Assembly (NCBI RefSeq): GCF_000244955.1
Contig: NZ_CM001439.1
Location: 1,206,628 to 1,270,627 of the forward strand
Direction of reading: 5' to 3'
From: Saccharomonospora marina XMU15
GTDB taxonomy: Bacteria; Actinomycetota; Actinomycetes; Mycobacteriales; Pseudonocardiaceae
DNA: 64,000 nt
Below the pieces are notes generated by a model that saw only the letters and a program-made list of their open reading frames with translations, searched no databases and had not been told where the DNA came from. How positions within the stretch are numbered: position 1 is the stretch's first letter; every line of letters starts with the position of its first letter. Below are positions 15,729 through 33,398 of this stretch, in pieces. Position numbers and translations under genes: made by a program.

Positions 15729-15733
15729 GGACG

Positions 15734-17155: not shown

Positions 17156-17201
17156 CCGACGCCCAGGTCGGCCAGGACGCGGAGCAGCGGGAGATGAGCA
17201 C

Positions 17202-19675: not shown

Positions 19676-19677
19676 CC

Positions 19678-20004
19678 GCGAGTCCCCCGCCCATGCCCGC
19701 GAGTCCTGCACTCGGGTCCGCGAGTCCTGCACTCGGGTCGGCGAGTCCTGCACTCGGGTCGGCGAGTTCTGCCCTCGGGCCCGCGAGTCCTGCACTCGGG
19801 TCCGAGGATGCCGCACGCCGCGTCGCGGTTGACAGGCCTTGCCCGCACCCGCCTGGCCGAACCCGCTCGCTGAGGCGGGCGGTCCCAGGCTCACCGAACG
19901 CAGAACTCGCGGGCAGGAACGCAGAACTCGCGGGTGGGAACGCAGAACTCGCGGGTGGGAACGCGGGACTCGCGGGCGAGAAGGGGGACTCGCGGGTTGT
20001 GAGG
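19678..20004. repeat. 21-bp tandem repeat array B, two opposed arms
   Basis: The left arm (19678-19803) has six 21-bp units starting with GCGAGTCCCCCGCCC just after the amidohydrolase stop and continuing as GCGAGTCCTGCACTCGGG plus three bases. The right arm (19900-20004) has five units in the reverse orientation, GCAGAACTCGCGGG, ending in the GGGGGACTCGCGGG variant beside the paaX stop. About 96 bases of non-repeated sequence separate them. The whole element is a large imperfect palindrome between two convergent genes. Within a unit, CGAGT and ACTCG can form a 5-bp hairpin around CCTGC. Confidence 0.9.
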
Positions 20005-20871
20005 CTAGGCGGCTTCCTCGCCCGCCAGGCGTTCCTCCCAACGCCGCTGGGCGGCGGGACGCCACTCGGCGTGCCTGCGGTGGAAGATCTCGGCAGCCTG
20101 GCTGCCGCTCCAGTCCTCGGGCAGCAGCTGCTCCGGCAACTGCGGGTCGAGGAACGGAAACCGGCGCCATTCGTGCACCAGCCGGGTCTGCGCGTGCAGC
20201 ACGGCATCGCCGCCTCGCGGGTCCAGCGAGGCGAACTCGTCGATGAACGCCTCGTACCGCGCGTCGAGTTCCCGCAGGTCCCAGGCCCGTGCGACCATCG
20301 TTGCCTCGTCTCCGATCGCACCGTAGGGCCCGACGAAGGACATCGCGTTCTCCAACGCGAGCTCGGCCACGATGCCGACCGCTTCGGGCTCCCTGTCGAC
20401 ATGCGGCGTTATCCACACACCGGGGTCGGGCGAGCCGAAGCCCGCCCAAGTGAGCTTGGTGCGCAACCGGTGGCGCAGGTCGCGTTTGGGCTCGGGAACC
20501 GACACCAGTACCAGCAGCCACTGCCCGTCCCAGCTGCGCTCGCGGCTGCCGAAGTCGTAGATGCGCTGCGCGCCTTCGGTGAGCAGCTTGCGGCCCTGCG
20601 ATGTCAGCGACCAGCGCACCCGCCTGCCGACGCGCTCCGACTCCAGCCAGCCCTCCGCAGCGGTGCGGGCCAGCGCCTGCCTCGCCGACTTCTCCTCCAC
20701 CTCGAACATCGCGAGCGCGTCGACCAGCACCGACGTCCACACCGGACGACCACGCGGGAGTACGAACTCGCCGAGCAGTGTCATCAGCAGCGAGCGCGCG
20801 CTGGTGTGGCTCACCTCGCGGCGCCTGCTGACCACCGGCTTGCCGCGTCGTTGCCCGGCTGATGTCACCAT
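20005..20871 (-). CDS. PaaX-family transcriptional repressor
   Basis: A 288-residue protein with an N-terminal winged helix (ARSLLMTLLGEFVLPRGRPV, then VEEKSARQALARTAAEGWL) and the long C-terminal PaaX domain. In known systems PaaX represses phenylacetate genes and is released by phenylacetyl-CoA; relatives respond to other aryl-CoAs. Here it lies 44 bp downstream of mftE on the same strand and is convergent with the benzoyl-CoA operon. It is therefore a natural candidate for a benzoyl-CoA-responsive regulator of box or for the last gene of the mycofactocin operon (inference). Confidence 0.8.
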   Translation of the reverse strand: MVTSAGQRRGKPVVSRRREVSHTSARSLLMTLLGEFVLPRGRPVWTSVLVDALAMFEVEEKSARQALARTAAEGWLESERVGRRVRWSLTSQGRKLLTEGAQRIYDFGSRERSWDGQWLLVLVSVPEPKRDLRHRLRTKLTWAGFGSPDPGVWITPHVDREPEAVGIVAELALENAMSFVGPYGAIGDEATMVARAWDLRELDARYEAFIDEFASLDPRGGDAVLHAQTRLVHEWRRFPFLDPQLPEQLLPEDWSGSQAAEIFHRRHAEWRPAAQRRWEERLAGEEAA

Positions 20872-20915: not shown

Positions 20916-21584
20916 CTACTGCCCCAACCAATCGCGCACGGTGCTGACCAGTGCATCCGACCAGGTCGCCAGCAGTTCCTCGCCCTCGACGGCGGAGGCA
21001 CCCTCGGGGTCGCCGAGCACCCCGTTGCCGCTCACGGTGCGTACACCACCTTGCCGCAAGCGGTCCCACAACCGTGGTAGCGGCTCGGTATTGCCCGCCC
21101 TCGCCGCCGAAAGCCGGACCTCGGAGGGGCGAAGCGCGAGCATCACCGAGGTCTCGGTACGGCCCGCGTGGGAGTCGTCCGCGCGTCCGCTCGGTGCCCA
21201 CGACAGCACCTCGCGGCCCTCCTCCCGCAGCGTGCGAACGGCTCTGGCCAACGGTGCCGCGTTGCCTCCGTGCCCGTTGACCAGCACCGCCGCGGCGAAG
21301 TGGTCGGCGGAGCGGACGAGTTCCAGCACTACCAGCTCCAGCGCGGGGCCGCCGATGGACAGGGTGCCTGCGAAACCGGCGTGCTCACCGCTCGACCCGA
21401 ACGGCAGCGGTGGGGCGACGACGACTCCGGCGACCCTCGCGGCCAGGCGCTCGCTCAACTCCACCGCGATCGCGGTGTCGGTGTGCAACGGAAGGTGTGG
21501 GCCGTGCTGCTCGGTCGCGCCGAGCGGAACGGCGAGTACCGCCCGTGGGACCTCCGGCGAACGCAGCGCGCCGAGTTCGGTCAC
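20916..21584 (-). CDS. mftE: Mycofactocin precursor peptidase MftE
   Basis: A 222-residue creatininase-family metallopeptidase with the metal-binding block LGATEQHGPHLPLHTDTAIA, the motif LVNGHGGNAAP and the conserved DSHAGRTETS. MftE cuts the modified MftA peptide to release the C-terminal Val-Tyr-derived AHDP. The GTG start overlaps the mftF stop (GTGA). Confidence 0.9.
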   Translation of the reverse strand: MTELGALRSPEVPRAVLAVPLGATEQHGPHLPLHTDTAIAVELSERLAARVAGVVVAPPLPFGSSGEHAGFAGTLSIGGPALELVVLELVRSADHFAAAVLVNGHGGNAAPLARAVRTLREEGREVLSWAPSGRADDSHAGRTETSVMLALRPSEVRLSAARAGNTEPLPRLWDRLRQGGVRTVSGNGVLGDPEGASAVEGEELLATWSDALVSTVRDWLGQ

Positions 21585-22900
21585 CGCAACCCAGCCTCGG
21601 TGAACCGCGGCAGCAGTGGCGCAGGCGTGCGGTGGCGCACGCAACCGGCCCACACTCCGGCGCCGTAGGCGAGATCGTCGGCCACCCGCAGCGCCAGCCA
21701 CGCCGGGGAACGGCCCACCGAATCCACCACGCACGGCAGTAGCGAGGCGAGCAACGCCGTGCGGCCACGCCCGCTGAGCAGTGCCGCAGGCCACCAAGCC
21801 CTGCGGGTCGCCTCGGCGAGCAGCCGTCCCGCGCCGAGATGGCCGAGTCCGGCCAGCCGAAGCGACTCGCTCGCCGGAACACCACGGCCACGCAGTTTGC
21901 GCGGCAGCAGCGCCGCCGTCGCGGCGGCGAGCCCGAGCGCGGGCAGCGGTCTGCCTGCGGCCAGCAGCGCCCACGAGACCGCGCTCCATACCGAAAGCCT
22001 CGCGCAACTGAGCAGCCCCGGGTGTTTGCGAGAGAGTGGGGCGGCCGACGTGCCGTACTCGAAGCGCTGCCGCAACCACGGCAACAGCGCGGGGCGCGGC
22101 TCGTGGGTCACCCTCGCCGACGGCTCGTAGCGCACCGAGCCGATCCGCAGCAGCCGCCACACGAGGTCCACGTCCTCACCGAATCGAAGCCCGGTGTCGA
22201 ACCCGGCAACGGCGGCCAGCGCGTCCCTGCGCACGACGAGCGCCGCGCTGGGAACGTAGCTGACCCGGCTCATCGGGCGTACCGGGGCCGGGTGCGGCCC
22301 CAGGTCCAGGCTCGAGCGGTGCGCCTCGTACCTTGCCAGCACGCCGCTGCCGGGCGCGCCGACGACGCGCGGAGCCACCGCCACCACGTCGTCGTCGCCG
22401 AACTGGGCCAGCACCGCTTCCAGCCACCCCGGCTGGGGCACGGTGTCGGCGTCGAGGAACGCCACCAGCGGTGTCGAGGCCAGCGCCCAACCCGCGTTGC
22501 GGGCGGCGGCGGGCCCCATGGCGCGGTCGTGTCGCACGGTGGCCTCTGCCAGCGGGACGGCCGAGCCGTCGTCGACGACGACGCGGTCGGCCAGCTCTTT
22601 GGTCGCATCGAGCAGCCGCCGTACGCCCGCCGCGTTGTCCTTGACCGGCACCACGAGCGTCACGTCGCTGGGTGCCGGTCCCGATGGCGGCCTCGGGTGC
22701 AGCAACCCGGCCCGCACCAGGCGACGGGCCAGTTCCCGCTCTCGCTCGCCCTCGCCCACCGGTTCTCCGGACGACCAGCGCTCCAGCAGCCGAGCCCCGG
22801 CACCGCCCAGCCGAACCAGCCGAAGCGGGGACCCGCCGATCAGCAGCGTGCCCCTGCGCCGCACCGATGCGTCGAGAGTGAGCCGGGTGCCTGCCTTCAC
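21581..22900 (-). CDS. mftF: Mycofactocin glycosyltransferase MftF
   Basis: A 439-residue GT2-type glycosyltransferase. The catalytic domain starts around residue 75 (VTLVVPVKDNAAGVRRLLD), with the nucleotide-sugar DxD-like motif FLDADTVPQPGW and the acceptor-side FGEDVDLVWRL. The hydrophobic C-terminal third suggests membrane association. MftF adds the beta-1,4-glucose chain to premycofactocin. The GTG start overlaps the SDR stop, so the apparent open frame further upstream is a shadow of the SDR gene. Confidence 0.9.
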   Translation of the reverse strand: MKAGTRLTLDASVRRRGTLLIGGSPLRLVRLGGAGARLLERWSSGEPVGEGERERELARRLVRAGLLHPRPPSGPAPSDVTLVVPVKDNAAGVRRLLDATKELADRVVVDDGSAVPLAEATVRHDRAMGPAAARNAGWALASTPLVAFLDADTVPQPGWLEAVLAQFGDDDVVAVAPRVVGAPGSGVLARYEAHRSSLDLGPHPAPVRPMSRVSYVPSAALVVRRDALAAVAGFDTGLRFGEDVDLVWRLLRIGSVRYEPSARVTHEPRPALLPWLRQRFEYGTSAAPLSRKHPGLLSCARLSVWSAVSWALLAAGRPLPALGLAAATAALLPRKLRGRGVPASESLRLAGLGHLGAGRLLAEATRRAWWPAALLSGRGRTALLASLLPCVVDSVGRSPAWLALRVADDLAYGAGVWAGCVRHRTPAPLLPRFTEAGLR

Positions 22901-23712
22901 GATGTGAAACCACCGTCGGCGTGCACAACGGTGCCGGTGACCGCGCTCGATTCCGGTGAGCACAGGAAGCAAACGGCGGCCGCGACCTCGTCGGGGTCGA
23001 GCAGCCGGTCCACCAACTGGTGCGTGGCGAACTCCTCGACGTCGTCGAGGCCGTACAGCCGGGCCGTGGCCTCGAGCATGTCGGTGCGCGTCGAGCCGGG
23101 GGAGACCGCGGTGGCGCAGATCCCGGTGCCGCGCAGGTCGTGGGCAAGCCCCTTGACCAGGCCCACGACCGCGTGTTTCGCGGCGTTGTACCCGGCAAGG
23201 TGCCACAGTCCGTGGTGCGCGGCCGCCGAGGCCAGCGCGACGAACCGCCCGTTACGCGGCCGGGGGCGCTCCAGCAGCGCGGGAACGGCGGCACGCGCGA
23301 GGTTGGCCACGCCGTTGACCCCGACGGAGAACAGTGCCTCCCACTCGGCCTCCCACTCGGACTCGCCGGTTTCCCACAGCGGTTTTCCTCCCGCGATGAG
23401 CCCGGCACCCGCGACCGCGGCGTCAAGGCCGCCGAACCGGTCCCGTGCGATGTCGACCGCGCGCCGCAGCGCGGCAAGATCCTGCACGTCGGCGACGACG
23501 TCGACGACCTTGTCGGGGTGTTGCGCGGCGACGGCGGCCAGCTGCTCGCGGCCTGCGAGCGGGTATGGCACGCGGGGATCGTCGGCGCAGCGGTCGGTGG
23601 CCACGACGTTCCAGCCGGAACGGGCCATGCGGTGCACCACCGCCGCGCCGATGCCGCGGCCCGCTCCGGTGACCAGCGCGACCCGTCCGCCGTCCGTGGT
23701 CTGCCGCGTCAT
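22897..23712 (-). CDS. Mycofactocin-coupled short-chain dehydrogenase
   Basis: A 271-residue SDR with the dinucleotide motif TGAGRGIG at 16-23, a catalytic serine in ASAAAH and the YNAAKHA active-site motif. It has the 20-odd-residue insertion containing PRVPYPLAGREQL after beta-2. That insertion marks the mycofactocin-coupled SDR family, in which NAD stays bound and is re-oxidised by mycofactocin. It ends in the mftF overlap and starts in an ATGA overlap with the etfB gene, so it is firmly inside the operon. The alcohol substrate is unknown. Confidence 0.88.
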   Translation of the reverse strand: MTRQTTDGGRVALVTGAGRGIGAAVVHRMARSGWNVVATDRCADDPRVPYPLAGREQLAAVAAQHPDKVVDVVADVQDLAALRRAVDIARDRFGGLDAAVAGAGLIAGGKPLWETGESEWEAEWEALFSVGVNGVANLARAAVPALLERPRPRNGRFVALASAAAHHGLWHLAGYNAAKHAVVGLVKGLAHDLRGTGICATAVSPGSTRTDMLEATARLYGLDDVEEFATHQLVDRLLDPDEVAAAVCFLCSPESSAVTGTVVHADGGFTS

Positions 23713-24599
23713 GCCAGATAGCCCTTGCCGCGTAGGTAGTTCAGCAACTCGTCGGCGGCGCGGCCCGCGTCGTCGGTGACGACCACCCTGGGTGGCTCGC
23801 GCTGTTCGTGTGCCCCGGTCAGCCGCAGCAGCCGCTGCCGGGGATCGGCGCCCTGCGGTGGTGGTAGTTCCTTGGCACGCGGACGGTAGGGGCGCACCGA
23901 GCGCACCGCGACCGGTGGCGCCGCGAGCGCGGTGGGGTCCGAGGGCACGACCGGGATGGTGGCCGTGCGCGCCGCGAGCGTGGCGCGCAGGTTCGCCCTG
24001 CGCAGCCGGACTCCAGCCGGTTCGACGGAACAGACGGCGGGAAGCGGAATCGCGAGCCGTTCCCTGCGGCCCCGGTCGAGCCTGCGCAGCCCGACCAGAC
24101 GCCCGCCGGTGTAGCTCAACTCGACGAGTCCGAGGGCCTGCGCGCAGCCGAGTTCGGCGGCGAGAAACGCAGGGGTGGCCCCGGTTCCTCGGTCGGCGGA
24201 GCGGTCACCGGTGAGCACCAGGTCAGGGTGCCCCAGCTCCTCACGCACCGCCCGCGCAAGCGCTTGCGCCGTTGTCGCGCCGGAGTCGGCCCCGTTGCCG
24301 GTGTGCTCGGCGCCGGTGGCGTGCCCCGGGTCCACCCGCAGTACCGCGTGCGCGCCGCAGGCGAGGGCGTCACGCAGCATCTCGGTGGCGGGTTCGGGTG
24401 CGAGCGAAACGGCCACGCACCGCCCGGCAACCGCCCGCGCGATGCGCAGACCGTGTTCCAGCGCGCAGCGGTCGGCCTCGCCGGGACCCGCACCACGCGC
24501 GTCGGTGCTCACCCGGCCCGTCAGCGCGTCGACGCGGGCGTGCGAGTCCACCCAGCGCATGGCCACCACGACGAGCGGCCCCGAACCGTGGTCAGCCAT
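23709..24599 (-). CDS. etfB: Electron-transfer flavoprotein beta subunit (FixA-like)
   Basis: A 296-residue EtfB/FixA-type protein. It has the AMP/FAD-binding layout of the family: VVVAMRWVDSHARVD at the start, ALEHGLRIA, and HPDLVLTGDRSADRGTGATP, which corresponds to the GxxxxDxxxGxxP loop. The C-terminal 60 residues are proline- and arginine-rich and unusual. Its start at 24599 overlaps the ferredoxin gene end by eight bases. With EtfA, FixC and FixX it makes a complete ETF and quinone-reductase set. Confidence 0.82.
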   Translation of the reverse strand: MADHGSGPLVVVAMRWVDSHARVDALTGRVSTDARGAGPGEADRCALEHGLRIARAVAGRCVAVSLAPEPATEMLRDALACGAHAVLRVDPGHATGAEHTGNGADSGATTAQALARAVREELGHPDLVLTGDRSADRGTGATPAFLAAELGCAQALGLVELSYTGGRLVGLRRLDRGRRERLAIPLPAVCSVEPAGVRLRRANLRATLAARTATIPVVPSDPTALAAPPVAVRSVRPYRPRAKELPPPQGADPRQRLLRLTGAHEQREPPRVVVTDDAGRAADELLNYLRGKGYLA

Positions 24600-24888
24600 G
24601 GCGGAACACCACGCCCTGCCCGCCGTCGGGATAGCTCCAGCTGATGGCGTTGCCGCCGTCGCACACCAGGTAGCACGTGCCGCACTCGAAGCACTGCTCG
24701 TAGTTGAACAGGATCCCACCGTCGTCGGTGGGCACGAACAGGTTGGCGGGGCAGGCGTGCACGCAGGCCTTGGTGGTGCACGAGCGGCAGACGTCGGTGT
24801 CGACCACGATGTGCGCGTTCGCCGCCACGCGGAAGTCGACGCGCGCCATCCGGTCGTCGAAGGCGACGTCGGCGTATCGCTGGGTCAT
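24592..24888 (-). CDS. fixX: FixX-type ferredoxin
   Basis: A 98-residue ferredoxin-like protein with CRSCTTKACVHACP and CFECGTCYLVC cysteine clusters, as in FixX proteins that partner FixC/ETF-quinone oxidoreductase. It probably completes the iron-sulfur domain that mammalian ETF-QO carries in one chain. The C-terminal WSYPDGGQGVVFRHG matches the family ending. It lies between fixC and etfB in a tightly packed operon. Confidence 0.88.
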   Translation of the reverse strand: MTQRYADVAFDDRMARVDFRVAANAHIVVDTDVCRSCTTKACVHACPANLFVPTDDGGILFNYEQCFECGTCYLVCDGGNAISWSYPDGGQGVVFRHG

Positions 24889-24898
24889 CTGGTGCTCC

Positions 24899-26248
24899 TC
24901 ATCCGAACGAGCGCAGGCCGGTCAGCGCGTCCCTTGCCAGTTGGTGCAGGCCCACGCCGTTACGTCTGGCCGAGCGGCGCAGCAGCCTGCGAAGGCCCGG
25001 CTTCGGGGCGGGGTTGTCCACCGTGAACATGCCCTCCACCAGGTCGCACACCAGGCCCGGATAGCGCTGCTGCACGCGGTCGGAAAGCACCAGCGCGGGC
25101 GCGTTGCGCAGCTTCTTGTGGTCGGCGAGTACGAACGAGTCCGCCAGCAGCGTCCGGTACTGCCGCAGCAGTTTCGGATCGTCGGCGCTCAGCGCACGTG
25201 CCGCCGCGCGGCCCGCGTACATGCCCGAGCCGAGCGCGAAGTTGACGCCCTCCAGCCAGATCCCGGCGGCAAGGCACATCGCCGCCGCGTCGCCCGCCAC
25301 CAGCAGCCCGTCGCCGACGAGTCGTGGCATCGTCCGGTAGCCGCCCTCGGGAATCAGGTGCGCGGAGTACTCCACCAACTCGGCTCCACGCACCAGTGGC
25401 CGGATCGAAGGGTGCCGCTTCAACCCGGCGAGGATCTCCTCCGGTCGCAGTCCCGCCTTCGCAAGACCGGGCAGGCCGAGCACGAGACCGACGCTGAGCG
25501 TGTCGTGGTTGGTGTAGACGAACCCGCCGCCGGGAACGCCACCGGTGCCGCCGAGTATCTCGATGTCCACACCGTCGGACCCGCTCACGCCGAAGCGTTC
25601 GTCGATGATCTCCTTGGGCAGCGCCAGGGTTTCCTTCACACCGAGCGTGGTGTGCTCGGCCTGCTCGCCGGGGTAGAGCCCGGCCTGCTTGGCGAGGAAG
25701 GAGTTCACCCCGTCGCAGGCGATGACCACCCTGGCCGTGAGGTCACCCTGCTCGCGGTCGGTGCGCACGCCGACCACCCGCCCGCCGCTCGTGCGAAGCA
25801 GCGAGGTGGCCACTGTGGACGGCACGAGCACGGCACCTGCCTGCCGCGCGTGGTCGGCGAGCCAGCTGTCGAACTCGGCGCGGTAGGTGGTGGCGCCGTT
25901 GTAGGGCGCGCTGCCCCAGTTCTGGCTGCGGAAGTCGACGGTCAGCGAACGCTCGCCGGACAGCAGCATCGTCTGCCGCCTGGTGATCCAGCGTTGCACC
26001 GGAACCCGTTCGAACCAGCCGGGGACCAGCTCGTCGAGCACCCGGCCGTACACCACACCGCCGTAGACGTTCTTCGAGCCGGGGAACGGGCCACGCTCAA
26101 GCAGCGCGACGGAGTGGCCCGCCCTGGCCAGCTCCAGCGCCGCGGCCGAGCCCGCGGGCCCAGCGCCCACCACGATCGCGTCGAAGTCGGTGGTGGCCGG
26201 TGGTTCCACGGTGACGGCCGCCCCTGCAGGGCCTGCCCTGTCACGCAT
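24899..26248 (-). CDS. fixC: FixC-type ETF-quinone oxidoreductase flavoprotein
   Basis: A 449-residue FAD protein with IVVGAGPAGSAAALELARAG near the N-terminus, the GSKNVYGGVVYG substrate-side motif and LLVAGDAAAMC as the FAD-closing motif. It resembles FixC and the flavin part of ETF-QO, which takes electrons from ETF and delivers them to quinone. ATG 26248 has GGGAG five bases upstream; ATG 26251 is also possible. It begins inside the end of etfA. Confidence 0.88.
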   Translation of the reverse strand: MRDRAGPAGAAVTVEPPATTDFDAIVVGAGPAGSAAALELARAGHSVALLERGPFPGSKNVYGGVVYGRVLDELVPGWFERVPVQRWITRRQTMLLSGERSLTVDFRSQNWGSAPYNGATTYRAEFDSWLADHARQAGAVLVPSTVATSLLRTSGGRVVGVRTDREQGDLTARVVIACDGVNSFLAKQAGLYPGEQAEHTTLGVKETLALPKEIIDERFGVSGSDGVDIEILGGTGGVPGGGFVYTNHDTLSVGLVLGLPGLAKAGLRPEEILAGLKRHPSIRPLVRGAELVEYSAHLIPEGGYRTMPRLVGDGLLVAGDAAAMCLAAGIWLEGVNFALGSGMYAGRAAARALSADDPKLLRQYRTLLADSFVLADHKKLRNAPALVLSDRVQQRYPGLVCDLVEGMFTVDNPAPKPGLRRLLRRSARRNGVGLHQLARDALTGLRSFG

Positions 26249-27194
26249 CATCGCTCCCACTCAGTCGGCGGGCCAGTTCCCGAAGCAGTGCCTGCGCGTC
26301 GGTGACCAGCCCGAGATCGGCCATCGCCGTCATCGGTGAACTGGCGTCGGTGTTCACCGACACCACGTGCCGTGGCGCGCCGAGCCCACCGGTGTGCTGG
26401 GTGGCACCGGACACCCCGAAGGCCACGTAGAGGTCCGGGTCCACGATCACGCCGGTGGTGCCGATCTGCCGCTCGTAGGGCGCCCAGCCCGCGTCCGTGA
26501 CGACCCTGGTCGCGCCCACCGAAGCCCCCAGCGCCGCCGCCACCTTGCCGAGCAGCGCCACGGCGTCGGGACCGGACAGTTCGCCGGAGGCGAGCCCTGC
26601 GCCCGCACCGAGGATGCGTGGTGCCTCGGCGAGGTCGGCGGTCGCGGGGTCGGGGTCGAGCACCTCCAGCACCTCTGCGTCAGCCGCGGGGCTCACCTCC
26701 ACGTCGAGATCGGCAAGCTCCGGCGAGCCGTCGAAGGGCAGGCAGCCGCGCACACTCGGCAGCAGTGTCGCCACGAACGGCCCGCTCACCTCGACGGTCA
26801 CCGCCACTCGGGAATCCCACCTTGCCAACTCGGCCGAGGTCTCACCGACCCGCACGGCACCGGCCAGCAGCGGCCTCGCCAACTCGGCGGACAGCCGGGG
26901 TGCGAGGTCGCGGCCGTCGGGGGAGGCCGGCAGCACCACCCTCGGCACGTCACGCAGCGGCCGCGCCAGCGCCCGCGCCCACGCCGACGGCGCGAACTCG
27001 CCGAGTTCGGCGCACCAGGCACGGCGAAGCGGTGGAAGCTGGTCCACCGCCTCCCGGCAGCCCGAGCCCGCGAGCAGCGCCGTGCCGCAGGCCTCGGCGA
27101 CCGCCTCGTCCGCGCCGAGCGGAGCCATTCCTTCCCGGATCACCAACACGGCCAGCGAGTCGCAGCAGGCCAGCGGGCTTTCGGTCGCCGTCAC
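26241..27194 (-). CDS. etfA: Electron-transfer flavoprotein alpha subunit (FixB-like)
   Basis: A 317-residue EtfA. The C-terminal FAD domain is clear: VVTDAGWAPYERQIGTTG, DLYVAFGVSGATQHTGG and VSVNTDASSPM, all hallmarks of EtfA. The N-terminal half is weakly conserved, as is usual. The GTG start overlaps the stop of the upstream OYE-type gene (GTGA). Together with etfB it should accept electrons from a flavoprotein dehydrogenase encoded in the operon. Confidence 0.88.
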   Translation of the reverse strand: MTATESPLACCDSLAVLVIREGMAPLGADEAVAEACGTALLAGSGCREAVDQLPPLRRAWCAELGEFAPSAWARALARPLRDVPRVVLPASPDGRDLAPRLSAELARPLLAGAVRVGETSAELARWDSRVAVTVEVSGPFVATLLPSVRGCLPFDGSPELADLDVEVSPAADAEVLEVLDPDPATADLAEAPRILGAGAGLASGELSGPDAVALLGKVAAALGASVGATRVVTDAGWAPYERQIGTTGVIVDPDLYVAFGVSGATQHTGGLGAPRHVVSVNTDASSPMTAMADLGLVTDAQALLRELARRLSGSDDA

Positions 27195-29155
27195 AGTGCC
27201 ACCGCCACCCGGTGTCCTTCGACGACGGCCGCGTGTGCCCTGCGCGGCGCCACGCAGTCGCCCACCCTGTGCACCTCGAAGTCGGCCGTGCCGGACAGCT
27301 CCCGCCACAGGTCGTCCTCGGGCGCCTGGTGTGTCGCGCACACCACCCAGTCGAACCGCTCCTCGGCGGTGACGCCGGTGGTGTGCTTCAGCATTCGCAG
27401 CGCCACGCCCGAGGTCTCGGGGTCCGCCGCGGCTTCCAGCACCACCTCGTCGGTGGTCTGCGTGATGCCCTTCGCCGCGGCACGCACGTTGAACGTCTCC
27501 ATGTCCAGCGTGACGCCCAGGTCCTGGCCCACCACCATGCCGGAGGTGGAGATCCGCACCGAGCAGCCGCGGTCGGCCAGCAGTTCCGCGACCGACGTGG
27601 CCTGATGGAAACCGAGATCGTCGATGACACACACCTCGCCCTGCGGTGCGGCGCGGCCTTCCAGCACGTCTCGCACGTCGACGACGCGGTCGAGCCCACC
27701 GGCCCAGTGCGGTGGCGCGGGCCTGGCCCCGGTGGCGAGCACGACGGCCTCCGGGCGAAGTGCCGCGATCTGCTCGGCCGTGGCCGTGACACCGGTGCGC
27801 ACGTCCACGCCGTGGCGGTGGCACTCAGCGAGCGCGTTGCGTACCACGTCGAGGAACTCCGCGCGGCTGGGCACGCTCGCCGCCACGCTCACCTGGCCCC
27901 CTGTGGTGGGTTGCCGTTCGAGCAGCACCACGTCGTGTCCGCGTTGCGCGGCCGTGGCCGCCGCCTGCAGCCCGGCGGGGCCGCCGCCGACCACCACGAC
28001 CCTGCGGCCGCGTCGGACCGGGTCGGGAAGCGGCACGCTTTCCTTGCCGGTTCGGGGGTTCTCGATACAACCGAGCCAGCGGTTGAGCCCCATACGCCCG
28101 ACACATTCCTGGTTGCAGGAAAGGCAGGTGCGGATCTCGGCCGCCTGCCCCGCGCGTGCCTTCGCGACGAAATCGGCGTCGGCGATCTGCCCGCGCACCA
28201 CGCCGATGAGGTCGGCGTGTCCCTCGGCGAGCGCTCGGTCGGCCTGCAGCGGGTCCTTGAACCTGCCGACCCCCACCACGGGCAGGTCGACCGCCTTGCG
28301 GATGGCGCTGGGGATGAACATCGCGTACCCGGGCGGGATGCTCATCGAAGCCTCGATCATGTACAGCGTGGACGTGGCCACACCGATCGAGGTGTTGATG
28401 TAGTCGACGTCGCCCGTGGCCTCCACCCAACGCGCCACCTCGACCGCCTCGTCGATGGTGGTGCCGCCCTCGATCAACTCGTCGCCGCACAACCGTACGC
28501 CGAGCGCCATGCCCGGCCCGATCGCCTCCCGCACCGCAGCCACCAGGCGCAGCAGCAGCCGAGCCCGGTTCTCCAGCGGACCGCCGTAGTCGTCGTCGCG
28601 CCGGTTCGTCGCGGGGGAGAGGAACCCTCGCACGATGGAGGAGTGCGAGCACTGCAGTTCCACACCGTCGAAGCCGCCCTGCCTGCAATGTGTGGCCACC
28701 TTGGCGTAGCCCGCGACGATCTCGTCGATCTCCGTGACCGAGACCGCCTTGGGGACCTCGCGAAACAGCGGGTCGGGCACCGGCGACGGTGCCCACACCG
28801 GAAGCCGGGAGTACATGCTGGAGGCCTGGCCACCGTTGTGGTTGAGCTGGGCGAAGATCGGCACGCCGTGTGCGTGCACCGCCTCGGTGATGCGCCGGTA
28901 GCCCGCGACCACCTCGGGGTGGAAGCCGTGGATGAGCTTTTCGTAGGGCCAGTCCGTCGGGTGGGTGGAGTGCTCCTCGGTGATGATCAACCCGGCCCCA
29001 CCCGCCGCGCGGGCCGCGTAGTAGGCGGCGTGCTGGGCGCTCGGCATGCCGTCGGTCGCGTAGTTGGTGAGGTGCGCGGAGAACACCACCCGGTTCGCGA
29101 GCGTCACCGGCCCGATCCGAAGTGGCGAGAACAGGTAGCGGTAGCGGCTGTTCAT
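27191..29155 (-). CDS. Mycofactocin-system FadH/OYE-family oxidoreductase, first type
   Basis: A 654-residue protein with an N-terminal old-yellow-enzyme TIM barrel (FMN), a 4Fe-4S site CLSCNQECVG...C near residue 350 with all four cysteines, and a C-terminal FAD/NAD(P) domain (VVVVGGGPAGLQAAATAA). This is the 2,4-dienoyl-CoA reductase (FadH) architecture. Two such proteins recur in mycofactocin loci as FadH/OYE oxidoreductases; no reaction is established for them to my knowledge. Its ATG overlaps the stop of the sister gene (ATGA). It may reduce or oxidise a mycofactocin intermediate or a dedicated substrate. Confidence 0.82.
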   Translation of the reverse strand: MNSRYRYLFSPLRIGPVTLANRVVFSAHLTNYATDGMPSAQHAAYYAARAAGGAGLIITEEHSTHPTDWPYEKLIHGFHPEVVAGYRRITEAVHAHGVPIFAQLNHNGGQASSMYSRLPVWAPSPVPDPLFREVPKAVSVTEIDEIVAGYAKVATHCRQGGFDGVELQCSHSSIVRGFLSPATNRRDDDYGGPLENRARLLLRLVAAVREAIGPGMALGVRLCGDELIEGGTTIDEAVEVARWVEATGDVDYINTSIGVATSTLYMIEASMSIPPGYAMFIPSAIRKAVDLPVVGVGRFKDPLQADRALAEGHADLIGVVRGQIADADFVAKARAGQAAEIRTCLSCNQECVGRMGLNRWLGCIENPRTGKESVPLPDPVRRGRRVVVVGGGPAGLQAAATAAQRGHDVVLLERQPTTGGQVSVAASVPSRAEFLDVVRNALAECHRHGVDVRTGVTATAEQIAALRPEAVVLATGARPAPPHWAGGLDRVVDVRDVLEGRAAPQGEVCVIDDLGFHQATSVAELLADRGCSVRISTSGMVVGQDLGVTLDMETFNVRAAAKGITQTTDEVVLEAAADPETSGVALRMLKHTTGVTAEERFDWVVCATHQAPEDDLWRELSGTADFEVHRVGDCVAPRRAHAAVVEGHRVAVAL

Positions 29156-31077
29156 GCGGGCACCACCTGCCGGGCGGTGGAGACGGCCACTGCGGCCCTT
29201 CGCCCCTCCAGCACGGCCTCGTGGACCGTTCTGGGAGCGACGAGATCACCTGCGGGGACGGCACCGTCGACGAGCGGCGGTGTGCCGGGCAGCCGGTGTC
29301 CACAGTGCACCAGCACCGCCGACTCCAACTCGGTGGCCGCGCCGGTGAAGACGTCCTCGACCACGACGCGGTCGGGATACACCTCACGCAGCACGCTGCG
29401 CTTGGCCAGCCGCACGCCCGCACGCTGCAACCTGGCGTTGGCGTCGGCGAGGTCGCCGGTGATCGCCAGCTGGGTGCCGACCACCTGATCGTGGGTGACG
29501 ATGGTGACGGCGTGTTGCCGCGCGGCGAGCAGTTCCGCCACCGCCACGCCGACTGCATCGCCGACCGGGTCGAACACCGTGACCGTGCCCTGCGGCAGCG
29601 AGTCCGGTTCGCGCAGCAGGTCAACGACGTCCACCACGCGAGCGCCTTCGTGCGCGCCGTAGGACCGCGGCCCGGGGCGGGAACCGGTGGCGGCTATGAC
29701 GCTTTCGCCCGGCCTGGCCACGGTGTCCTCGCTTCCGGTGACGACCTCGACGCCGAGCCTGCGCACCTCGGCTTCCAGCCAGTCGGCGAGCCTTCCCAGC
29801 CGATCGCGCCCCGGCAGCGTCGCCGCCAGTGTCAGCATCCCGCCGAGTCGAGGTTCGCGTTCCACCAGCCGCACCCGGTGCCCGCGCAGCGCCAGCACCC
29901 TCGCGGCCTCCATTCCGGCGGGCCCGCCGCCGACCACGAGCACGGGGCCTGCCCAGTGCTGCCCCGTCGCGGTTTCGGCGGGGTCGGTGGTCTCGTGCCC
30001 GCTGCGGGGGTCGCCGATGCAGCTGACCACCGGGTTCCGGTTGTCCCGCACGCGGCACTTCTGGTTGGTGAGTGTGCACGGCCGGATGCGTTCGGGCTGC
30101 GACAGCTTGGCCACGAACTCGGCGTCGGCTATCTGCGCACGGGTCAGCTCCACCAGGTCGGCCACGCCGTCGGTGAGTGCCCACCGTGCCTGTTCCGGTT
30201 CGACGACCGAACCCTGCAGCACCACCCGGGTGGCACCGGCCGCCACCTGCCGCACGCGGCGGCTCAACTCGGCATTGAAGCCGGGTTCGGTGTGTGAATC
30301 GGGCCGGGTCGCCGATGTCCCCATCGCCGAACCACGTACGACCACGAGATAGTCCACCTTGGCCGCCACCTCGCGGGCGATGTGCTCGGCCTGCTCCGGT
30401 GTGATTCCGGCCCACGGTGCCAGCTCGTCGCACGAAAGCCGAAGCCCGAGCACGCGGTCGGCACCGATGCGGGCACGCACCGCGGCCAGTACCTCCCGCA
30501 ACAGCAGCAGCCGATCCTCGCCGTAGGCGTCGCCGCGCTGGTTGGTGAGCCCGGAAAGGAACTGCCGCAGCAGCGAGAACTGCCCCGCGTCCACCTCGAC
30601 ACCGTGCAGGCCGGACTCGGCGGCGAGCTCCGCGCCGAGGGCGAAACCCGCGACGACCGCCCTGATCTCGGCGGCCTCCATCTCCATCGGCATCTCCCGG
30701 CCGGCCACGTCCGGCACCCGCGAAGGCGCCCACAGCGGACGCTGCGAGTAGGCCGAAGAGCCCTGCGACCCGGCGTGGCCCAGCCCTGCGAGCACGAGTG
30801 TCCCGTGCGGACGGCAGGCGTCGGCGACCAGGGACCAGCCGGTTCCGCACTGCTGCGCCAGCGGCGCGCGCTCGTAGGGCCAGTCGGAGTCGTGCACGCT
30901 CGCCGTCTCGGTGACGACCAGCCCGGCACCACCGGCCGCCCGCCGCTCGTAGTAGGCCACGTGCGCCTTCGAAAGCGCCCTGCCCCGTGCCAGGTTTGTC
31001 TCGTGTGGACCGAACATCACCCTGGACGGGGCGGTCCTGGCTGCGAGGGTGATCGGTTCGGTGAGCGGTTCACTCAC
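29152..31077 (-). CDS. Mycofactocin-system FadH/OYE-family oxidoreductase, second type
   Basis: A 641-residue paralogue of the downstream protein with the same OYE barrel, linker and C-terminal dinucleotide domain (VLVVGGGPAGMEAARVLALRG). The iron-sulfur segment reads CTLTNQKC followed by SC, so the second cysteine of the usual CxxCNxxC is threonine; the DNA (TGC ACA CTC ACC) confirms this. The cluster may therefore be absent, three-ligated or use another residue. The GTG start overlaps the mftC stop. It occupies the position where mftD usually follows mftC. Confidence 0.8.
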   Translation of the reverse strand: MSEPLTEPITLAARTAPSRVMFGPHETNLARGRALSKAHVAYYERRAAGGAGLVVTETASVHDSDWPYERAPLAQQCGTGWSLVADACRPHGTLVLAGLGHAGSQGSSAYSQRPLWAPSRVPDVAGREMPMEMEAAEIRAVVAGFALGAELAAESGLHGVEVDAGQFSLLRQFLSGLTNQRGDAYGEDRLLLLREVLAAVRARIGADRVLGLRLSCDELAPWAGITPEQAEHIAREVAAKVDYLVVVRGSAMGTSATRPDSHTEPGFNAELSRRVRQVAAGATRVVLQGSVVEPEQARWALTDGVADLVELTRAQIADAEFVAKLSQPERIRPCTLTNQKCRVRDNRNPVVSCIGDPRSGHETTDPAETATGQHWAGPVLVVGGGPAGMEAARVLALRGHRVRLVEREPRLGGMLTLAATLPGRDRLGRLADWLEAEVRRLGVEVVTGSEDTVARPGESVIAATGSRPGPRSYGAHEGARVVDVVDLLREPDSLPQGTVTVFDPVGDAVGVAVAELLAARQHAVTIVTHDQVVGTQLAITGDLADANARLQRAGVRLAKRSVLREVYPDRVVVEDVFTGAATELESAVLVHCGHRLPGTPPLVDGAVPAGDLVAPRTVHEAVLEGRRAAVAVSTARQVVPA

Positions 31078-32264
31078 GGGCGGAAGCCGGCGAGCGGGCT
31101 GGTGTCACAGGCCCGGTCCGGCAACCGGTCCGGCTCGGGGGGACCCCAGCCGATCGGAACGGCGACACGCTTGCGGCCCCGGCGCGAGTGGTCCTTGTCC
31201 GGCCTCGGCTTCTCGCCGCCACCGACCGTCGCGAGCGCGCGCTCGCCGTTGCCCTTGACGCACTCGGGGTCGGGCCCGTCGAGCGGCAGCCCGGTGAAGA
31301 ACTTCGCCGCCATGCAACCGCCCTGGCAGGAGTCGTATGCCGAGCAGGACGAGCAGGCGCCGCCGGTCTGCGGCGTCCGCAACCGCGCGAACAGCTCCGA
31401 CTCGCGCCACACGGAGGTGAAGCCGCCCTCGTCGCGCACGTTGCCCGCCAGGAACTCGTCGTGGATAGCGAAGGGGCACGCGTACACGTCGCCCACCGGG
31501 TCGATGAGGCAGACAACGCGCCCCGCGCCACACAGGTTCAGTCCCGGCAGCGGGGTCGAGCCGAGCGCGTTGAGGTGGAAGAACGAGTCGCCGGTCAGCA
31601 CGTTCTCGCCGCTGGCCACGAGCCATTCGTACAGCCGCAGCTGTTGCTCGGCGGTGGGATGCAGTTCGTCCCAGGTGTCGGCCCCTCGCCCGGACGGCCG
31701 TAGCCGGGTGATGCGTAGCTGGGCACCGTAGGAGTCGGCGAGCCTCTTGAACTCGTCGAGCTGGTCCACGTTGTGCCGGGTCATCACGACGCTGATCTTG
31801 AAGTTCGCGAAGCCCGCGTCCCGCAGGTTCTCCATGGCGCGCAGTGCGGTGTCGTAGGACCCTGGCCCGCGCACATGGTCGTTGACCTCCGCGGTCGCGC
31901 CGTCGAGCGACAGTTGCACGTCCACGTAGTCGGTGCTCGCCAACCAGCGGGCGCGCTCGGGTGTGATGCGTACACCGTTGGTGGAGAACTTCACCCCGAC
32001 CTGGTGATCGACGGCATACTCCACGATCTCCCAGAAGTCGCCGCGCACGGTGGGCTCGCCGCCGCCGATGTTGACGTAGAACACCTGCAGTCGCTGCAGC
32101 TCGTCGATGACCGCCTTGCATTCCGCTGTGGACAGTTCACGTGGGTCCCGCCGTCCCGACGACGAAAGGCAGTGCATGCACGAGAGGTTGCACGCGTAGG
32201 TCAGCTCCCAGGTCAGACAGATGGGAGCGTCGAGGCCGTGCTGGAAGTGCTCGACAAGCTTCAT
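31074..32264 (-). CDS. mftC: Mycofactocin radical SAM maturase MftC
   Basis: A 396-residue radical SAM/SPASM protein. The CxxxCxxC cluster is C25-C29-C32 (YACNLSCMHC) and GGGEP is at 67-71. The C-terminal SPASM domain holds the auxiliary-cluster cysteines (LNLCGAG, YACPFA, CSSCSAYDSCQGGC). MftC decarboxylates the C-terminal tyrosine of MftA and then forms a Val-Tyr crosslink. AAGGGAG precedes ATG 32264. A charged, proline-rich extension follows the SPASM domain. Confidence 0.93.
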   Translation of the reverse strand: MKLVEHFQHGLDAPICLTWELTYACNLSCMHCLSSSGRRDPRELSTAECKAVIDELQRLQVFYVNIGGGEPTVRGDFWEIVEYAVDHQVGVKFSTNGVRITPERARWLASTDYVDVQLSLDGATAEVNDHVRGPGSYDTALRAMENLRDAGFANFKISVVMTRHNVDQLDEFKRLADSYGAQLRITRLRPSGRGADTWDELHPTAEQQLRLYEWLVASGENVLTGDSFFHLNALGSTPLPGLNLCGAGRVVCLIDPVGDVYACPFAIHDEFLAGNVRDEGGFTSVWRESELFARLRTPQTGGACSSCSAYDSCQGGCMAAKFFTGLPLDGPDPECVKGNGERALATVGGGEKPRPDKDHSRRGRKRVAVPIGWGPPEPDRLPDRACDTSPLAGFRP

Positions 32265-32316
32265 GGGTCTCCCTTCGAAGGCCGCGTGGCCGGTGCCGGT
32301 GCCGCTGGTGCCGCTG

Positions 32317-32634
32317 TTACCGCTGGGCACTCACGATGGTTCCGGCCGAGGCCAGCCCGGCGAGCGCGTCGAGATAGCGCGGGTGCTCGGCACGCGGGAC
32401 GCCCGCCGATTCCAGCGCCGACCGCGCGTCCGGCTGGTTTTCCAGCTCCCGGACGACATCGACGAGCAGGCGGGTCTTGAGGAAGGACAGTTTCCTGGTG
32501 GTGAAGTCGTATACGAGTGCACCGAACGGTTCCGGTCGCAGCGCGACACTGGAACTGAGCCGGTAAGGCCGGTCCGGTTCGAACGAACCGGCGCTCACGG
32601 CTGTTCGGTGGGAAGCAGGGGCGTCAGTAGACAC
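32317..32634 (-). CDS. mftB: Mycofactocin RiPP chaperone MftB
   Basis: A 105-residue protein with the RRE-like fold of MftB: RPYRLSSSVALRPEPFGALVYDF and then the helical KLSFLKTRLLVDVVRELE. MftB binds the MftA leader and presents it to MftC. The GTG start at 32634 lies inside the end of mftA (11-bp overlap), so expression is coupled to the precursor gene. Confidence 0.92.
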   Translation of the reverse strand: MSTDAPASHRTAVSAGSFEPDRPYRLSSSVALRPEPFGALVYDFTTRKLSFLKTRLLVDVVRELENQPDARSALESAGVPRAEHPRYLDALAGLASAGTIVSAQR

Positions 32635-32716
32635 CGCACATGCCGTCGATCGAGACTTCTTCGACGAGCATGTCGTCCTCGACGACGGCGTCCTCGTGGG
32701 TCTGCGACTCGTTCAT
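32624..32716 (-). CDS. mftA: Mycofactocin precursor peptide MftA
   Basis: A 30-residue peptide beginning MNESQTHEDAVVEDD and ending IDGMCGVY. The C-terminal IDGMCGVY is the family hallmark; Val29 and Tyr30 are the residues that become mycofactocin. It is acidic in its leader, as is typical. GAGGAG lies nine bases before ATG 32716. It is first in the operon, directly ahead of mftB and mftC. Confidence 0.95.
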   Translation of the reverse strand: MNESQTHEDAVVEDDMLVEEVSIDGMCGVY

Positions 32717-32792: not shown

Positions 32793-33398
32793 ATGGCGAA
32801 GGAGCCGTCAGATCCACCCGTCCGGCCAGGTAGGCGCCGTTCGACCAGCCAGTACGAGTTGGAGCGCGTGGCGTTCGAACTCTTCGAACGCCACGGCTTC
32901 GAGGCGACCACCGTCGACGACATCGCCAGGAGCGCGGGCATCGGAAGGCGGACCTTCTTCCGGTACTTCGACTCGAAGAACGACGTGGTCTGGGGTGCGT
33001 TCAGCGACCAGTTGCAACGGATGCGTGACCGGTTCCGCGACCGGCCCGACGACGAGCCGCTCATGGACGCGGTGCGCACCGTCGTCGTGGACTTCAACCG
33101 CGTCGATGCCGCCGAGGTGCCCCGGCACCGCAGGCGGATGGAGCTGATCCTGCGGGTACCGGCGTTGCAGGCGCACTCGACGCTGCGTTACGCCGAGTGG
33201 CGGGCGGTGGTGGCCGAGTTCGCGGCGCTGCGCCTCGGGGTGTCGCCGAGGGAACTGCTGCCGCAGGCCATTGCCTACGCGGCGCTTGGCGTCGCGCTGG
33301 CCGCCTACGAGCACTGGCTGGCCCGCACCGACGTGGAGCTGTGCGAACTGCTCGACACCGCCATGGCAGCACTGGCGCAGGGCTTCGGCAACGACTGA
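32793..33398 (+). CDS. mftR: Mycofactocin-system TetR regulator MftR
   Basis: A 201-residue TetR protein, divergent from mftA. The helix-turn-helix reads FELFERHGFEATTVDDIARS, followed by AGIGRRTFFRYFDSK, the pattern of MftR proteins. In M. smegmatis MftR represses the mft genes and is released by long-chain acyl-CoAs. ATG 32793 has GAAGGGG close upstream; an ATG at 32781 is an alternative. Repeat array C begins 17 bases after its stop. Confidence 0.88.
   Translation: MAKEPSDPPVRPGRRRSTSQYELERVAFELFERHGFEATTVDDIARSAGIGRRTFFRYFDSKNDVVWGAFSDQLQRMRDRFRDRPDDEPLMDAVRTVVVDFNRVDAAEVPRHRRRMELILRVPALQAHSTLRYAEWRAVVAEFAALRLGVSPRELLPQAIAYAALGVALAAYEHWLARTDVELCELLDTAMAALAQGFGND

What the first reader, a model, noticed from the sequence alone, without database searches (positions are those of the whole stretch)
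27191..32716. Mycofactocin operon without mftD; two FadH/OYE flavoproteins occupy its place
mftA, B, C, E, F and R are all present, but no LldD-like FMN dehydrogenase (MftD) is found in the window. In the usual order mftD follows mftC; here mftC is directly coupled to two OYE/FadH-type proteins. MftD makes the redox-active alpha-keto amide (premycofactocin) from AHDP. Either mftD is elsewhere, or an OYE-type enzyme performs this or an alternative maturation, giving a different cofactor.
Basis: partly seen in the sequence, partly recalled or inferred. Interest (0 to 1): 0.85.

Follow-up and report, generated by a model that had tools for sequence, protein, structure and literature searches.

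The report
Mycofactocin operon missing its usual oxidase
An actinobacterium makes the peptide cofactor mycofactocin with an operon in which the usual oxidase gene is replaced by two other flavoproteins and an electron-transfer chain; this genome keeps the usual oxidase far away, but some other bacteria with such an operon seem to lack it, which suggests that the replacement genes can do its job.

Summary
In detail: one operon (20916-32716, minus strand) runs mftA-B-C-OYE_1-OYE_2-etfA-fixC-fixX-etfB-SDR-mftF-mftE, with mftR divergent and no mftD in the window. The strict reading 'this organism lacks MftD' is wrong: a bona fide mftD (691 bits, cut-off 470.85) lies 3.78 Mb away in contig coordinates. 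The wider idea holds up better. In 150 family genomes, 11 of 65 with MftC show no MftD; all 11 carry OYE_1. In a phylum sample the 7 MftC genomes without MftD are exactly the 7 genomes, besides the own, with OYE_1; 0 of 35 without OYE_1 lack MftD. Within the family the loss goes with the OYE plus ETF-FixCX block (11 of 21 with it, 0 of 9 without ETF). Best reading: a flavin/iron-sulfur dehydrogenase with its own ETF can replace MftD's deamination of AHDP; the chemistry is inferred. Main rival: the block reoxidises mycofactocinol, like MftG. Saccharopolyspora clusters without mftD but with TIGR03997 were reported in 2024 (PMC11162802); new here are the exclusion pattern, the ETF link and the mechanism.

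The parts
32624..32716 (-). mftA, 30 aa precursor ending IDGMCGVY
32317..32598 (-). mftB (chaperone, TIGR03967); start codon chosen by alignment
31074..32330 (-). mftC radical SAM maturase (TIGR03962); the only one over cut-off in the genome
29152..31077 (-). OYE_1, mycofactocin FadH/OYE family oxidoreductase 1 (TIGR03996); one Fe-S cysteine position is Thr
27191..29155 (-). OYE_2, mycofactocin FadH/OYE family oxidoreductase 2 (TIGR03997); four Fe-S cysteines, no NADPH GxGxxG, His171
26241..27194 (-). mycofactocin-associated ETF alpha (NF038209)
24899..26260 (-). FixC-like ETF:quinone oxidoreductase-type flavoprotein (best models under cut-off)
24592..24888 (-). FixX-like ferredoxin (60 bits, under cut-off 166)
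23709..24599 (-). mycofactocin-associated ETF beta (TIGR04503)
22897..23712 (-). mycofactocin-coupled SDR (TIGR04504)
21581..22900 (-). mftF glycosyltransferase (TIGR03965)
20916..21644 (-). mftE peptidase (TIGR03964)
32793..33398 (+). mftR regulator (TIGR03968), divergent

Best explanation
The window holds an OYE/ETF-type mycofactocin operon in which the block OYE_1-OYE_2-EtfA-FixC-FixX-EtfB sits in the slot that mftD fills in canonical operons. Shown: the block, its tight packing, the conserved MftA core, and that in the samples only genomes with OYE_1 lack MftD. Inferred: OYE_1/OYE_2 form an FMN/[4Fe-4S] dehydrogenase related to histamine and trimethylamine dehydrogenases, which oxidises the amine of AHDP to the keto amide (premycofactocin), hands the electrons through the iron-sulfur cluster to EtfAB, and these pass them by FixC/FixX to menaquinone; no oxygen is needed. 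This genome also has an orphan mftD, possibly a leftover of a second, canonical operon as in some relatives, so both routes may exist in it.
For: Co-occurrence: family sample, MftC in 65, MftD in 54, OYE_1 in 30 of 150; the 11 MftC genomes without MftD all have OYE_1, 0 of 35 MftC genomes without OYE_1 lack MftD (Fisher p 6e-5). Phylum sample of 366: MftD-less MftC genomes (7) and OYE_1 genomes other than the own (7) are the same set. Within the family the ETF block goes with the loss: 11 of 21 with it, 0 of 9 without (p 0.011). On an MftC tree the MftD-less rows need at least 9 changes on starred branches; in 9 independent pairs that differ in MftD loss, ETF goes the same way in 5.7 on average, the other way in 0, and does not differ in 3.3 (median p 0.03; 0.06 with the roles of the traits exchanged). 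Gene order equals that of a canonical operon with mftD exchanged for the block (L167 v. window). OYE_2 keeps four Fe-S cysteines in 102 of 102, lacks the FadH NADPH motif and in that region resembles histamine dehydrogenase. His171 is present in 64 of 64 ETF-linked and 3 of 20 ETF-less OYE_2, and two rows without ETF inside the ETF clade, L125 and L070, have Gln there and long branches. TMADH gives its electrons to ETF through [4Fe-4S] (PMC8097209, passages). BGCFlow (PMC11162802, section read) states that S. erythraea makes a methylated mycofactocin although the Saccharopolyspora clusters studied lack mftD.
Against: 10 of 21 family genomes with the full block, the own among them, keep an MftD. 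OYE_1 and OYE_2 stand beside mftD in 4 Rhodococcus/Prescottella loci, so they have a role that is not MftD replacement, at least without ETF. By sequence OYE_2 is nearer to FadH and naphthoyl-CoA reductase (268, 258 bits) than to histamine dehydrogenase (194 bits), and OYE_1's best fold match is naphthoyl-CoA reductase, 2 Z units above TMADH. The cysteine of histamine dehydrogenase's PHC motif aligns with Leu29, and the Tyr of its VYGAH motif with Gln168. OYE_1 has an incomplete Fe-S site in many rows (position 337 is Cys in 44 of 78 ETF-linked). For 3 of the 7 phylum genomes (G240, G337, G471) no ETF was seen in the stretches fetched. His171/ETF rests on 3 independent contrasts (p 0.25). Whether the S. 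erythraea genome has MftD outside the cluster was not tested. No chemistry was tested.
Confidence: 0.5

Rival explanations
1. The OYE-ETF-FixCX block is the mycofactocinol:quinone oxidoreductase of these bacteria, a functional analogue of MftG, and the AHDP step in MftD-less genomes is done by another enzyme such as an LldD-type paralogue.
For: The main MftG model (TIGR03970, E 1e-120) matches only 5 of 150 family genomes, one genus, and the eLife 2025 paper leaves open which enzymes replace MftG in the quarter of MftC genomes without it (PMC11778925, passages). ETF plus FixCX should end at the quinone pool. OYE_1/2 coexist with mftD in Rhodococcus. The 11 MftD-less family genomes keep LldD-like paralogues whose best score is 163-332 bits.
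Against: It does not explain why only OYE_1 genomes lack MftD; 31 of the 35 family genomes with MftC and no OYE_1 have no TIGR03970 match either, yet all 35 have MftD. LldD-like paralogues of similar score occur in genomes that keep MftD (212-265 bits). In the 4 Rhodococcus/Prescottella loci OYE_1/2 stand beside an MftG-like gene, so there they need not replace MftG.
Confidence: 0.25
2. In this and similar genomes the orphan MftD makes premycofactocin as usual; the OYE/ETF genes are mycofactocin-linked catabolic or electron-bridging enzymes that do not take part in biosynthesis.
For: The own orphan MftD is 691 bits, keeps 114 of 120 residues invariant in 25 operon MftDs, and stands beside a mycofactocin-coupled SDR. 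19 of 30 OYE_1 genomes of the family have MftD.
Against: 18 genomes in two samples with mft operons show no MftD, one of them a single contig, 98% complete (G100). A purely catabolic role predicts no link between OYE_1 and MftD loss.
Confidence: 0.15
3. MftD-less operons make a different cofactor from AHDP that is not the keto amide.
For: MftD, the known keto-amide-forming enzyme, is not found in 18 genomes.
Against: MftA core in 18 of 18, and mftE and mftF in 14 of 18, are kept; the mycofactocin-coupled SDR stays in the operon of 11 of 11 family genomes; S. erythraea is said to make a methylated mycofactocin (PMC11162802).
Confidence: 0.08

Closest known systems
Canonical mycofactocin operon (mftABCDEF, mftR; Mycobacterium type)
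   Same: mftA core, B, C, E, F, R; a relative (L167) reads mftR|A-B-C-D-SDR-F-E
   Different: mftD absent from the operon; OYE_1-OYE_2-ETF-FixCX in its slot; orphan mftD elsewhere in this genome
Saccharopolyspora mycofactocin-like clusters without mftD (BGCFlow, PMC11162802)
   Same: 17 clusters, IDGMCGVY, missing TIGR03966, TIGR03997 present (section read)
   Different: That section looks at clusters of one genus and gives TIGR03997 no function; OYE_1, ETF and whole-genome absence of MftD are not discussed in it
Histamine / trimethylamine dehydrogenase (FMN, [4Fe-4S] amine dehydrogenases; TMADH gives electrons to ETF)
   Same: Full-length fold (for OYE_2: 2tmd Z 38.5, 3k30 Z 37.4; for OYE_1 42.3 and 41.2), four Fe-S cysteines in OYE_2, His at the VYGAH position, no NADPH motif, ETF genes alongside
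   Different: No cysteine at the PHC position, Gln for Tyr of VYGAH; FadH and naphthoyl-CoA reductase match the fold as well or better and are nearer in sequence; substrate unknown
MftG (GMC mycofactocinol dehydrogenase)
   Same: Proposed link of mycofactocin redox to respiration
   Different: Other protein superfamily; no TIGR03970 match at E 1e-120 in this genome

Membership tests
Mycofactocin biosynthesis operon | mftA with IDGMCGVY, mftB, mftC | tested here: met
Mycofactocin biosynthesis operon | mftE and mftF | tested here: met
Mycofactocin biosynthesis operon | mftD in the operon | tested here: not met
   no TIGR03966 match in the window; orphan copy 3.78 Mb away in contig coordinates
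MftD (TIGR03966) | orphan gene at C1:5024055 over the curated cut-off, with residues of operon MftDs | tested here: met
   691 bits, cut-off 470.85; 114 of 120
TIGR03996 and TIGR03997 (mycofactocin FadH/OYE 1 and 2) | over curated cut-off | tested here: met
FadH-type NADPH-dependent reductase | NADPH-binding GxGxxG in the third domain | tested here: not met
   OYE_2 has DDLGFHQ where 1ps9 has GCGGIG; OYE_1 reads FDPVGDAVG there
Histamine/trimethylamine dehydrogenase | four cysteines for [4Fe-4S] | tested here: met
   102 of 102 OYE_2; OYE_1 of the window has 3 of 4, so for OYE_1 it is not met
Histamine/trimethylamine dehydrogenase | cysteine for covalent FMN (role recalled) | tested here: not met
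   Leu29 of OYE_2 aligns with the Cys of the PHC motif of 3k30
Histamine/trimethylamine dehydrogenase | Tyr and His of the active-site VYGAH motif (roles recalled) | tested here: inconclusive
   His kept (H171), Tyr is Gln168
Histamine/trimethylamine dehydrogenase | amine oxidation with transfer to ETF | not testable with these tools
   needs purified protein; only gene linkage seen

The most novel reading that the evidence does not exclude
A second, oxygen-independent premycofactocin synthase: an OYE_1/OYE_2 flavin/iron-sulfur dehydrogenase that oxidatively deaminates AHDP and drives the electrons through a dedicated ETF and FixCX into menaquinone, a non-orthologous and repeatedly exchanged replacement of MftD across Actinomycetota, possibly also serving to reoxidise mycofactocinol.
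Probability: 0.42. Interest if true: 0.8.

Novelty: new variant of a known kind. Interest (0 to 1): 0.62.

Why it matters
MftD is described as required for the redox-active part of mycofactocin, and antiSMASH 6.1.1 used it to recognise such clusters (PMC11162802). If an OYE-ETF block can stand in for it, the pathway has two interchangeable solutions for its key step, one of which ties cofactor maturation to the respiratory chain. It would also give a role to families that NCBI names only by their neighbourhood (OYE_1, OYE_2, mft_etfA, mft_etfB) and make an open point, how genomes without MftD or MftG run this cofactor, testable in cultured species such as Saccharopolyspora spinosa and Prauserella.

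Tried and rejected
Rejected: 'the organism has no MftD'. Rejected: MftG as the gene that decides MftD loss, since TIGR03970 matches 5 of 150 family genomes, all 5 with MftD; the two other MftG models were not searched. Rejected: a hidden divergent MftD in the 11 family genomes; a relaxed search found LldD-like paralogues of up to 257 bits, and one of 332 bits in G111 that is 38% identical to the own MftD and on a very long branch. The relaxed search was not run for the 7 phylum genomes (cap reached); there the limit was E 1e-100. Weak spots: G019 and the second copy in G005 pass the MftD cut-off (526, 548 bits) but are 54% identical to the own one and on long branches, so G019 may be a twelfth MftD-less genome; I counted it as having MftD. 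Three OYE_1 matches that I counted are under the cut-off or in pieces: G134 (596 bits), G471 (556 bits, at a contig end) and G191 (535 bits, 790.7 with its neighbours). Led nowhere: a common context of orphan MftDs; the neighbours looked at differ (glucosylglycerate hydrolase and SDR, NDMA-methanol dehydrogenase, catalase, Fe-alcohol dehydrogenase and others). The whole mftC contigs of G240 and G337 gave no ETF, mftE or mftF; the rest of those genomes was not read. A fold comparison cannot choose between reductase and amine dehydrogenase: naphthoyl-CoA reductase, TMADH, HisD, histamine dehydrogenase and FadH lie within 2.3 Z units for OYE_2 and 3.6 for OYE_1, where naphthoyl-CoA reductase leads. 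Only OYE monomers were modelled.

Literature: mycofactocin with old yellow enzyme (1 paper, listing only), with mftD (19, 12 papers), electron transfer flavoprotein (27, none), FadH (30, 4 papers), Pseudonocardia/Amycolatopsis (31; none of the 15 listed holds mycofactocin), ETF (34, none), premycofactocin (68), Saccharopolyspora (88), MftM (92). Of these I opened PMC3023750 (abstract, passages, parts 1 and 2 of 6), PMC11778925 (passages), PMC8406134 (passages), PMC11162802 (passages and one section); of the four, only PMC11162802 was seen to tie an OYE-family gene to the absence of mftD. PMC8097209 was read in passages. Ellerhorst 2022 (PMC9679996) and Ayikpoe 2019 (PMC6449177) were not held; the S. 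erythraea statement is second-hand.

Rows dropped: L113 (G125) fell out of the MftC tree as too short. That tree was built from fetched loci: 18 MftD-less genomes (17 kept), 10 OYE-ETF operons with MftD in the genome, 11 OYE operons without ETF (among them G043 and G050, whose OYE_1-like genes did not reach the limit) and 22 others. 118 of 120 OYE_1 and 102 of 106 OYE_2 sequences passed the length and score filter. One search used unique sequences: 64 ETF-linked and 20 ETF-less OYE_2, the latter a list that I made from the layouts; L087, L088, L092 and L099 were left unclassed (all His). The OYE_2 tree used 52 chosen rows. G240, G337 and G471 were left out of the ETF pair test. The model alignments took about half of the OYE loci. 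Many of the 80 loci are cut by contig ends, so absences there are weak.
Full report
What is there. The window (G000:C1:1206628-1270627, a single-contig genome of 5,965,593 bases, 99.98% complete) holds on its minus strand one tightly packed operon: mftA (32624-32716), mftB, mftC, OYE_1 (29152-31077), OYE_2 (27191-29155), etfA, a FixC-like flavoprotein, a FixX-like ferredoxin, etfB, a mycofactocin-coupled SDR, mftF and mftE (20916-21644), with mftR divergent. From mftB to mftE 9 of 10 neighbouring pairs overlap, 5 of them by 4 bases. OYE_1, OYE_2, etfA and etfB belong to families that NCBI has already named for their mycofactocin link (TIGR03996, TIGR03997, NF038209, TIGR04503).

MftD is elsewhere in this genome. 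A TIGR03966 search finds one match over the cut-off at C1:5024055-5025212 (691 bits, cut-off 470.85), 3.78 Mb from the operon in contig coordinates, beside a mycofactocin-coupled SDR (TIGR03971) and a glucosylglycerate hydrolase. It keeps 114 of 120 residues that are invariant in 25 operon MftDs. The one other genome of the genus that is held has it too. So the strict form of the finding does not hold. Some orphan MftDs look like remains of a second, canonical operon: those of G026, G063 and G090 are sisters of the operon MftD of G128, which still has a second operon with mftD; the own orphan is on a branch of its own, so for it this is an analogy. G046, G078 and G128 each carry one operon with mftD and one of the OYE type.

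But OYE-type operons seem able to do without MftD. In an even sample of 150 genomes of the family (Pseudonocardiaceae, judged from named loci), MftC is in 65, MftD in 54 and OYE_1 in 30. The 11 MftC genomes without MftD all have OYE_1; of 35 MftC genomes without OYE_1 none lacks MftD. By identical proteins the 11 include Prauserella muralis, P. cavernicola, P. endophytica, P. flavalba, Qaidamihabitans albus, Saccharopolyspora spinosa, Kutzneria buriramensis and Labedaea rhizosphaerae. A relaxed search of these 11 showed no MftD over the cut-off. A sample of 366 genomes across the phylum served as a replication: MftC 43, MftD 37 (one of them, G386, without MftC), OYE_1 8. Leaving out the own genome, the 7 MftC genomes without MftD are exactly the 7 with OYE_1, and 0 of 35 without OYE_1 lack MftD. 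Fisher tests give 6e-5 and 4e-8, but relatedness inflates these. On an MftC tree the MftD-less rows need at least 9 changes on well-supported branches. In 9 independent pairs that differ in MftD loss, ETF goes the expected way in 4 to 6, never the other way (median p 0.03), and OYE likewise (median p 0.06); with the traits exchanged the median p is 0.06 for both. So the trend is one-sided, but its phylogeny-corrected support is modest.

The ETF genes matter. Among the 30 OYE_1 genomes of the family, 21 have etfA/fixC in the operon and 11 of these lack MftD; 9 have no ETF in the stretch read and all 9 keep MftD (p 0.011). In the phylum sample 4 of the 7 show ETF genes near OYE or mftC; G240, G337 and G471 do not in the stretches read. 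Of 80 named OYE_1 loci, many of them cut by contig ends, 4 hold mftD: Rhodococcus or Prescottella, without ETF, with OYE_1 and OYE_2 beside mftD and an mftG-like gene. So OYE_1/2 by themselves are not simply a substitute; the full block may be. Gene order points the same way: L167 reads mftR|A-B-C-D-SDR-F-E and the window reads mftR|A-B-C-(six genes)-SDR-F-E.

What the OYE proteins look like. Both have the full-length fold shared by 2-naphthoyl-CoA reductase, trimethylamine dehydrogenase, histamine dehydrogenase, HisD amine oxidase and FadH (Z 36.5-38.8 for OYE_2 at mean pLDDT 78; 40.9-44.5 for OYE_1 at 83). In OYE_2 the four iron-sulfur cysteines are invariant in 102 of 102 sequences, the NADPH motif of FadH is gone and the region resembles histamine dehydrogenase. 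That fits an enzyme which gives electrons to ETF rather than one that takes them from NADPH; TMADH does so through its [4Fe-4S] cluster (PMC8097209, passages). Histamine dehydrogenase oxidatively deaminates a primary amine (recalled), the same type of reaction as MftD's. Against membership in that family: no cysteine at the PHC position, Gln168 for the Tyr, and higher sequence scores to FadH and naphthoyl-CoA reductase. At the aligned active-site position, His171 is found in 64 of 64 ETF-linked and 3 of 20 ETF-less OYE_2; L125 and L070, nested in the ETF clade, have no ETF neighbours, Gln at that place and long branches, though only 3 independent contrasts exist (p 0.25). OYE_1 is the less clear partner: its iron-sulfur site is incomplete in many rows.

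How it most likely works. MftA's core is unchanged in 18 of 18 MftD-less genomes, and mftE and mftF are seen in 14 of 18, so AHDP should be made and the product glycosylated. The step without an enzyme is the deamination of AHDP to the keto amide. The redox genes that I could tie to the loss of MftD are OYE_1 and, where the locus is complete, OYE_2 with EtfAB and FixCX; other redox genes of these genomes were not compared. I therefore favour a dehydrogenase route AHDP to OYE_1/2 to EtfAB to FixCX to menaquinone. Menaquinone (-74 mV) lies above PMFT/PMFTH2 (-255 mV; PMC11778925, passages), so the same chain could also reoxidise mycofactocinol, as MftG does; the main MftG model matches only 5 of 150 family genomes. 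That rival, or a double role, cannot be excluded.

What was known. Haft 2011 (PMC3023750, abstract, passages and two of six parts of the text) already said that TIGR03966 is in most but not all mycofactocin species. BGCFlow 2024 (PMC11162802, section read) described 17 Saccharopolyspora clusters without mftD but with TIGR03997 of unknown function, and cites production of a methylated mycofactocin by S. erythraea. New here, as far as the searches listed under Tried and rejected show, are the phylum-wide exclusion pattern of OYE_1 and MftD, the link to the ETF block, the His171 signature and a testable mechanism.

Noticed in passing
L014:6606-10128 (own genome C1:5022605-5026127): Orphan mftD lies between a glucosylglycerate hydrolase gene and a mycofactocin-coupled SDR; a second genome (G026, L148) also has a glucosylglycerate-hydrolase-like gene beside its orphan mftD (377 bits, under the cut-off of 550). 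A link to the sugar chain of mycofactocin is conceivable.
   Followed up: partly
L084, L086, L095, L098: Rhodococcus/Prescottella loci hold mftD, OYE_1, OYE_2 and an mftG-like gene together, without ETF: a mixed type that shows OYE_1/2 have a role beside MftD.
   Followed up: partly
L146 (G015): A catalase gene directly upstream of an orphan mftD; would fit an MftD that makes hydrogen peroxide.
   Followed up: no
L125 and L070, OYE_2: Two OYE_2 without ETF neighbours inside the ETF clade have Gln for His171 and long branches, as if released from a constraint.
   Followed up: partly
window 15623-20871: benzoyl-CoA epoxidase BoxB, a benzoate-CoA ligase family protein, an amidohydrolase and a PaaX-type regulator next to the mft operon.
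   Followed up: no
L058, L061: Contigs filed as MAG Bifidobacterium breve carry mft loci with the same identity to the query (56%) as those of actinobacterium IMCC26207 (L060); probably mislabelled bins.
   Followed up: no
G223:C1 9568 and 5983950: mftC and mftD matches of identical score near both ends of a single contig of about 6.0 Mb, probably an untrimmed circular overlap.
   Followed up: no
L164 (G013) 8132: An etfB-like match (104 bits) inside an mft operon with mftD, perhaps a trace of an exchanged block.
   Followed up: no
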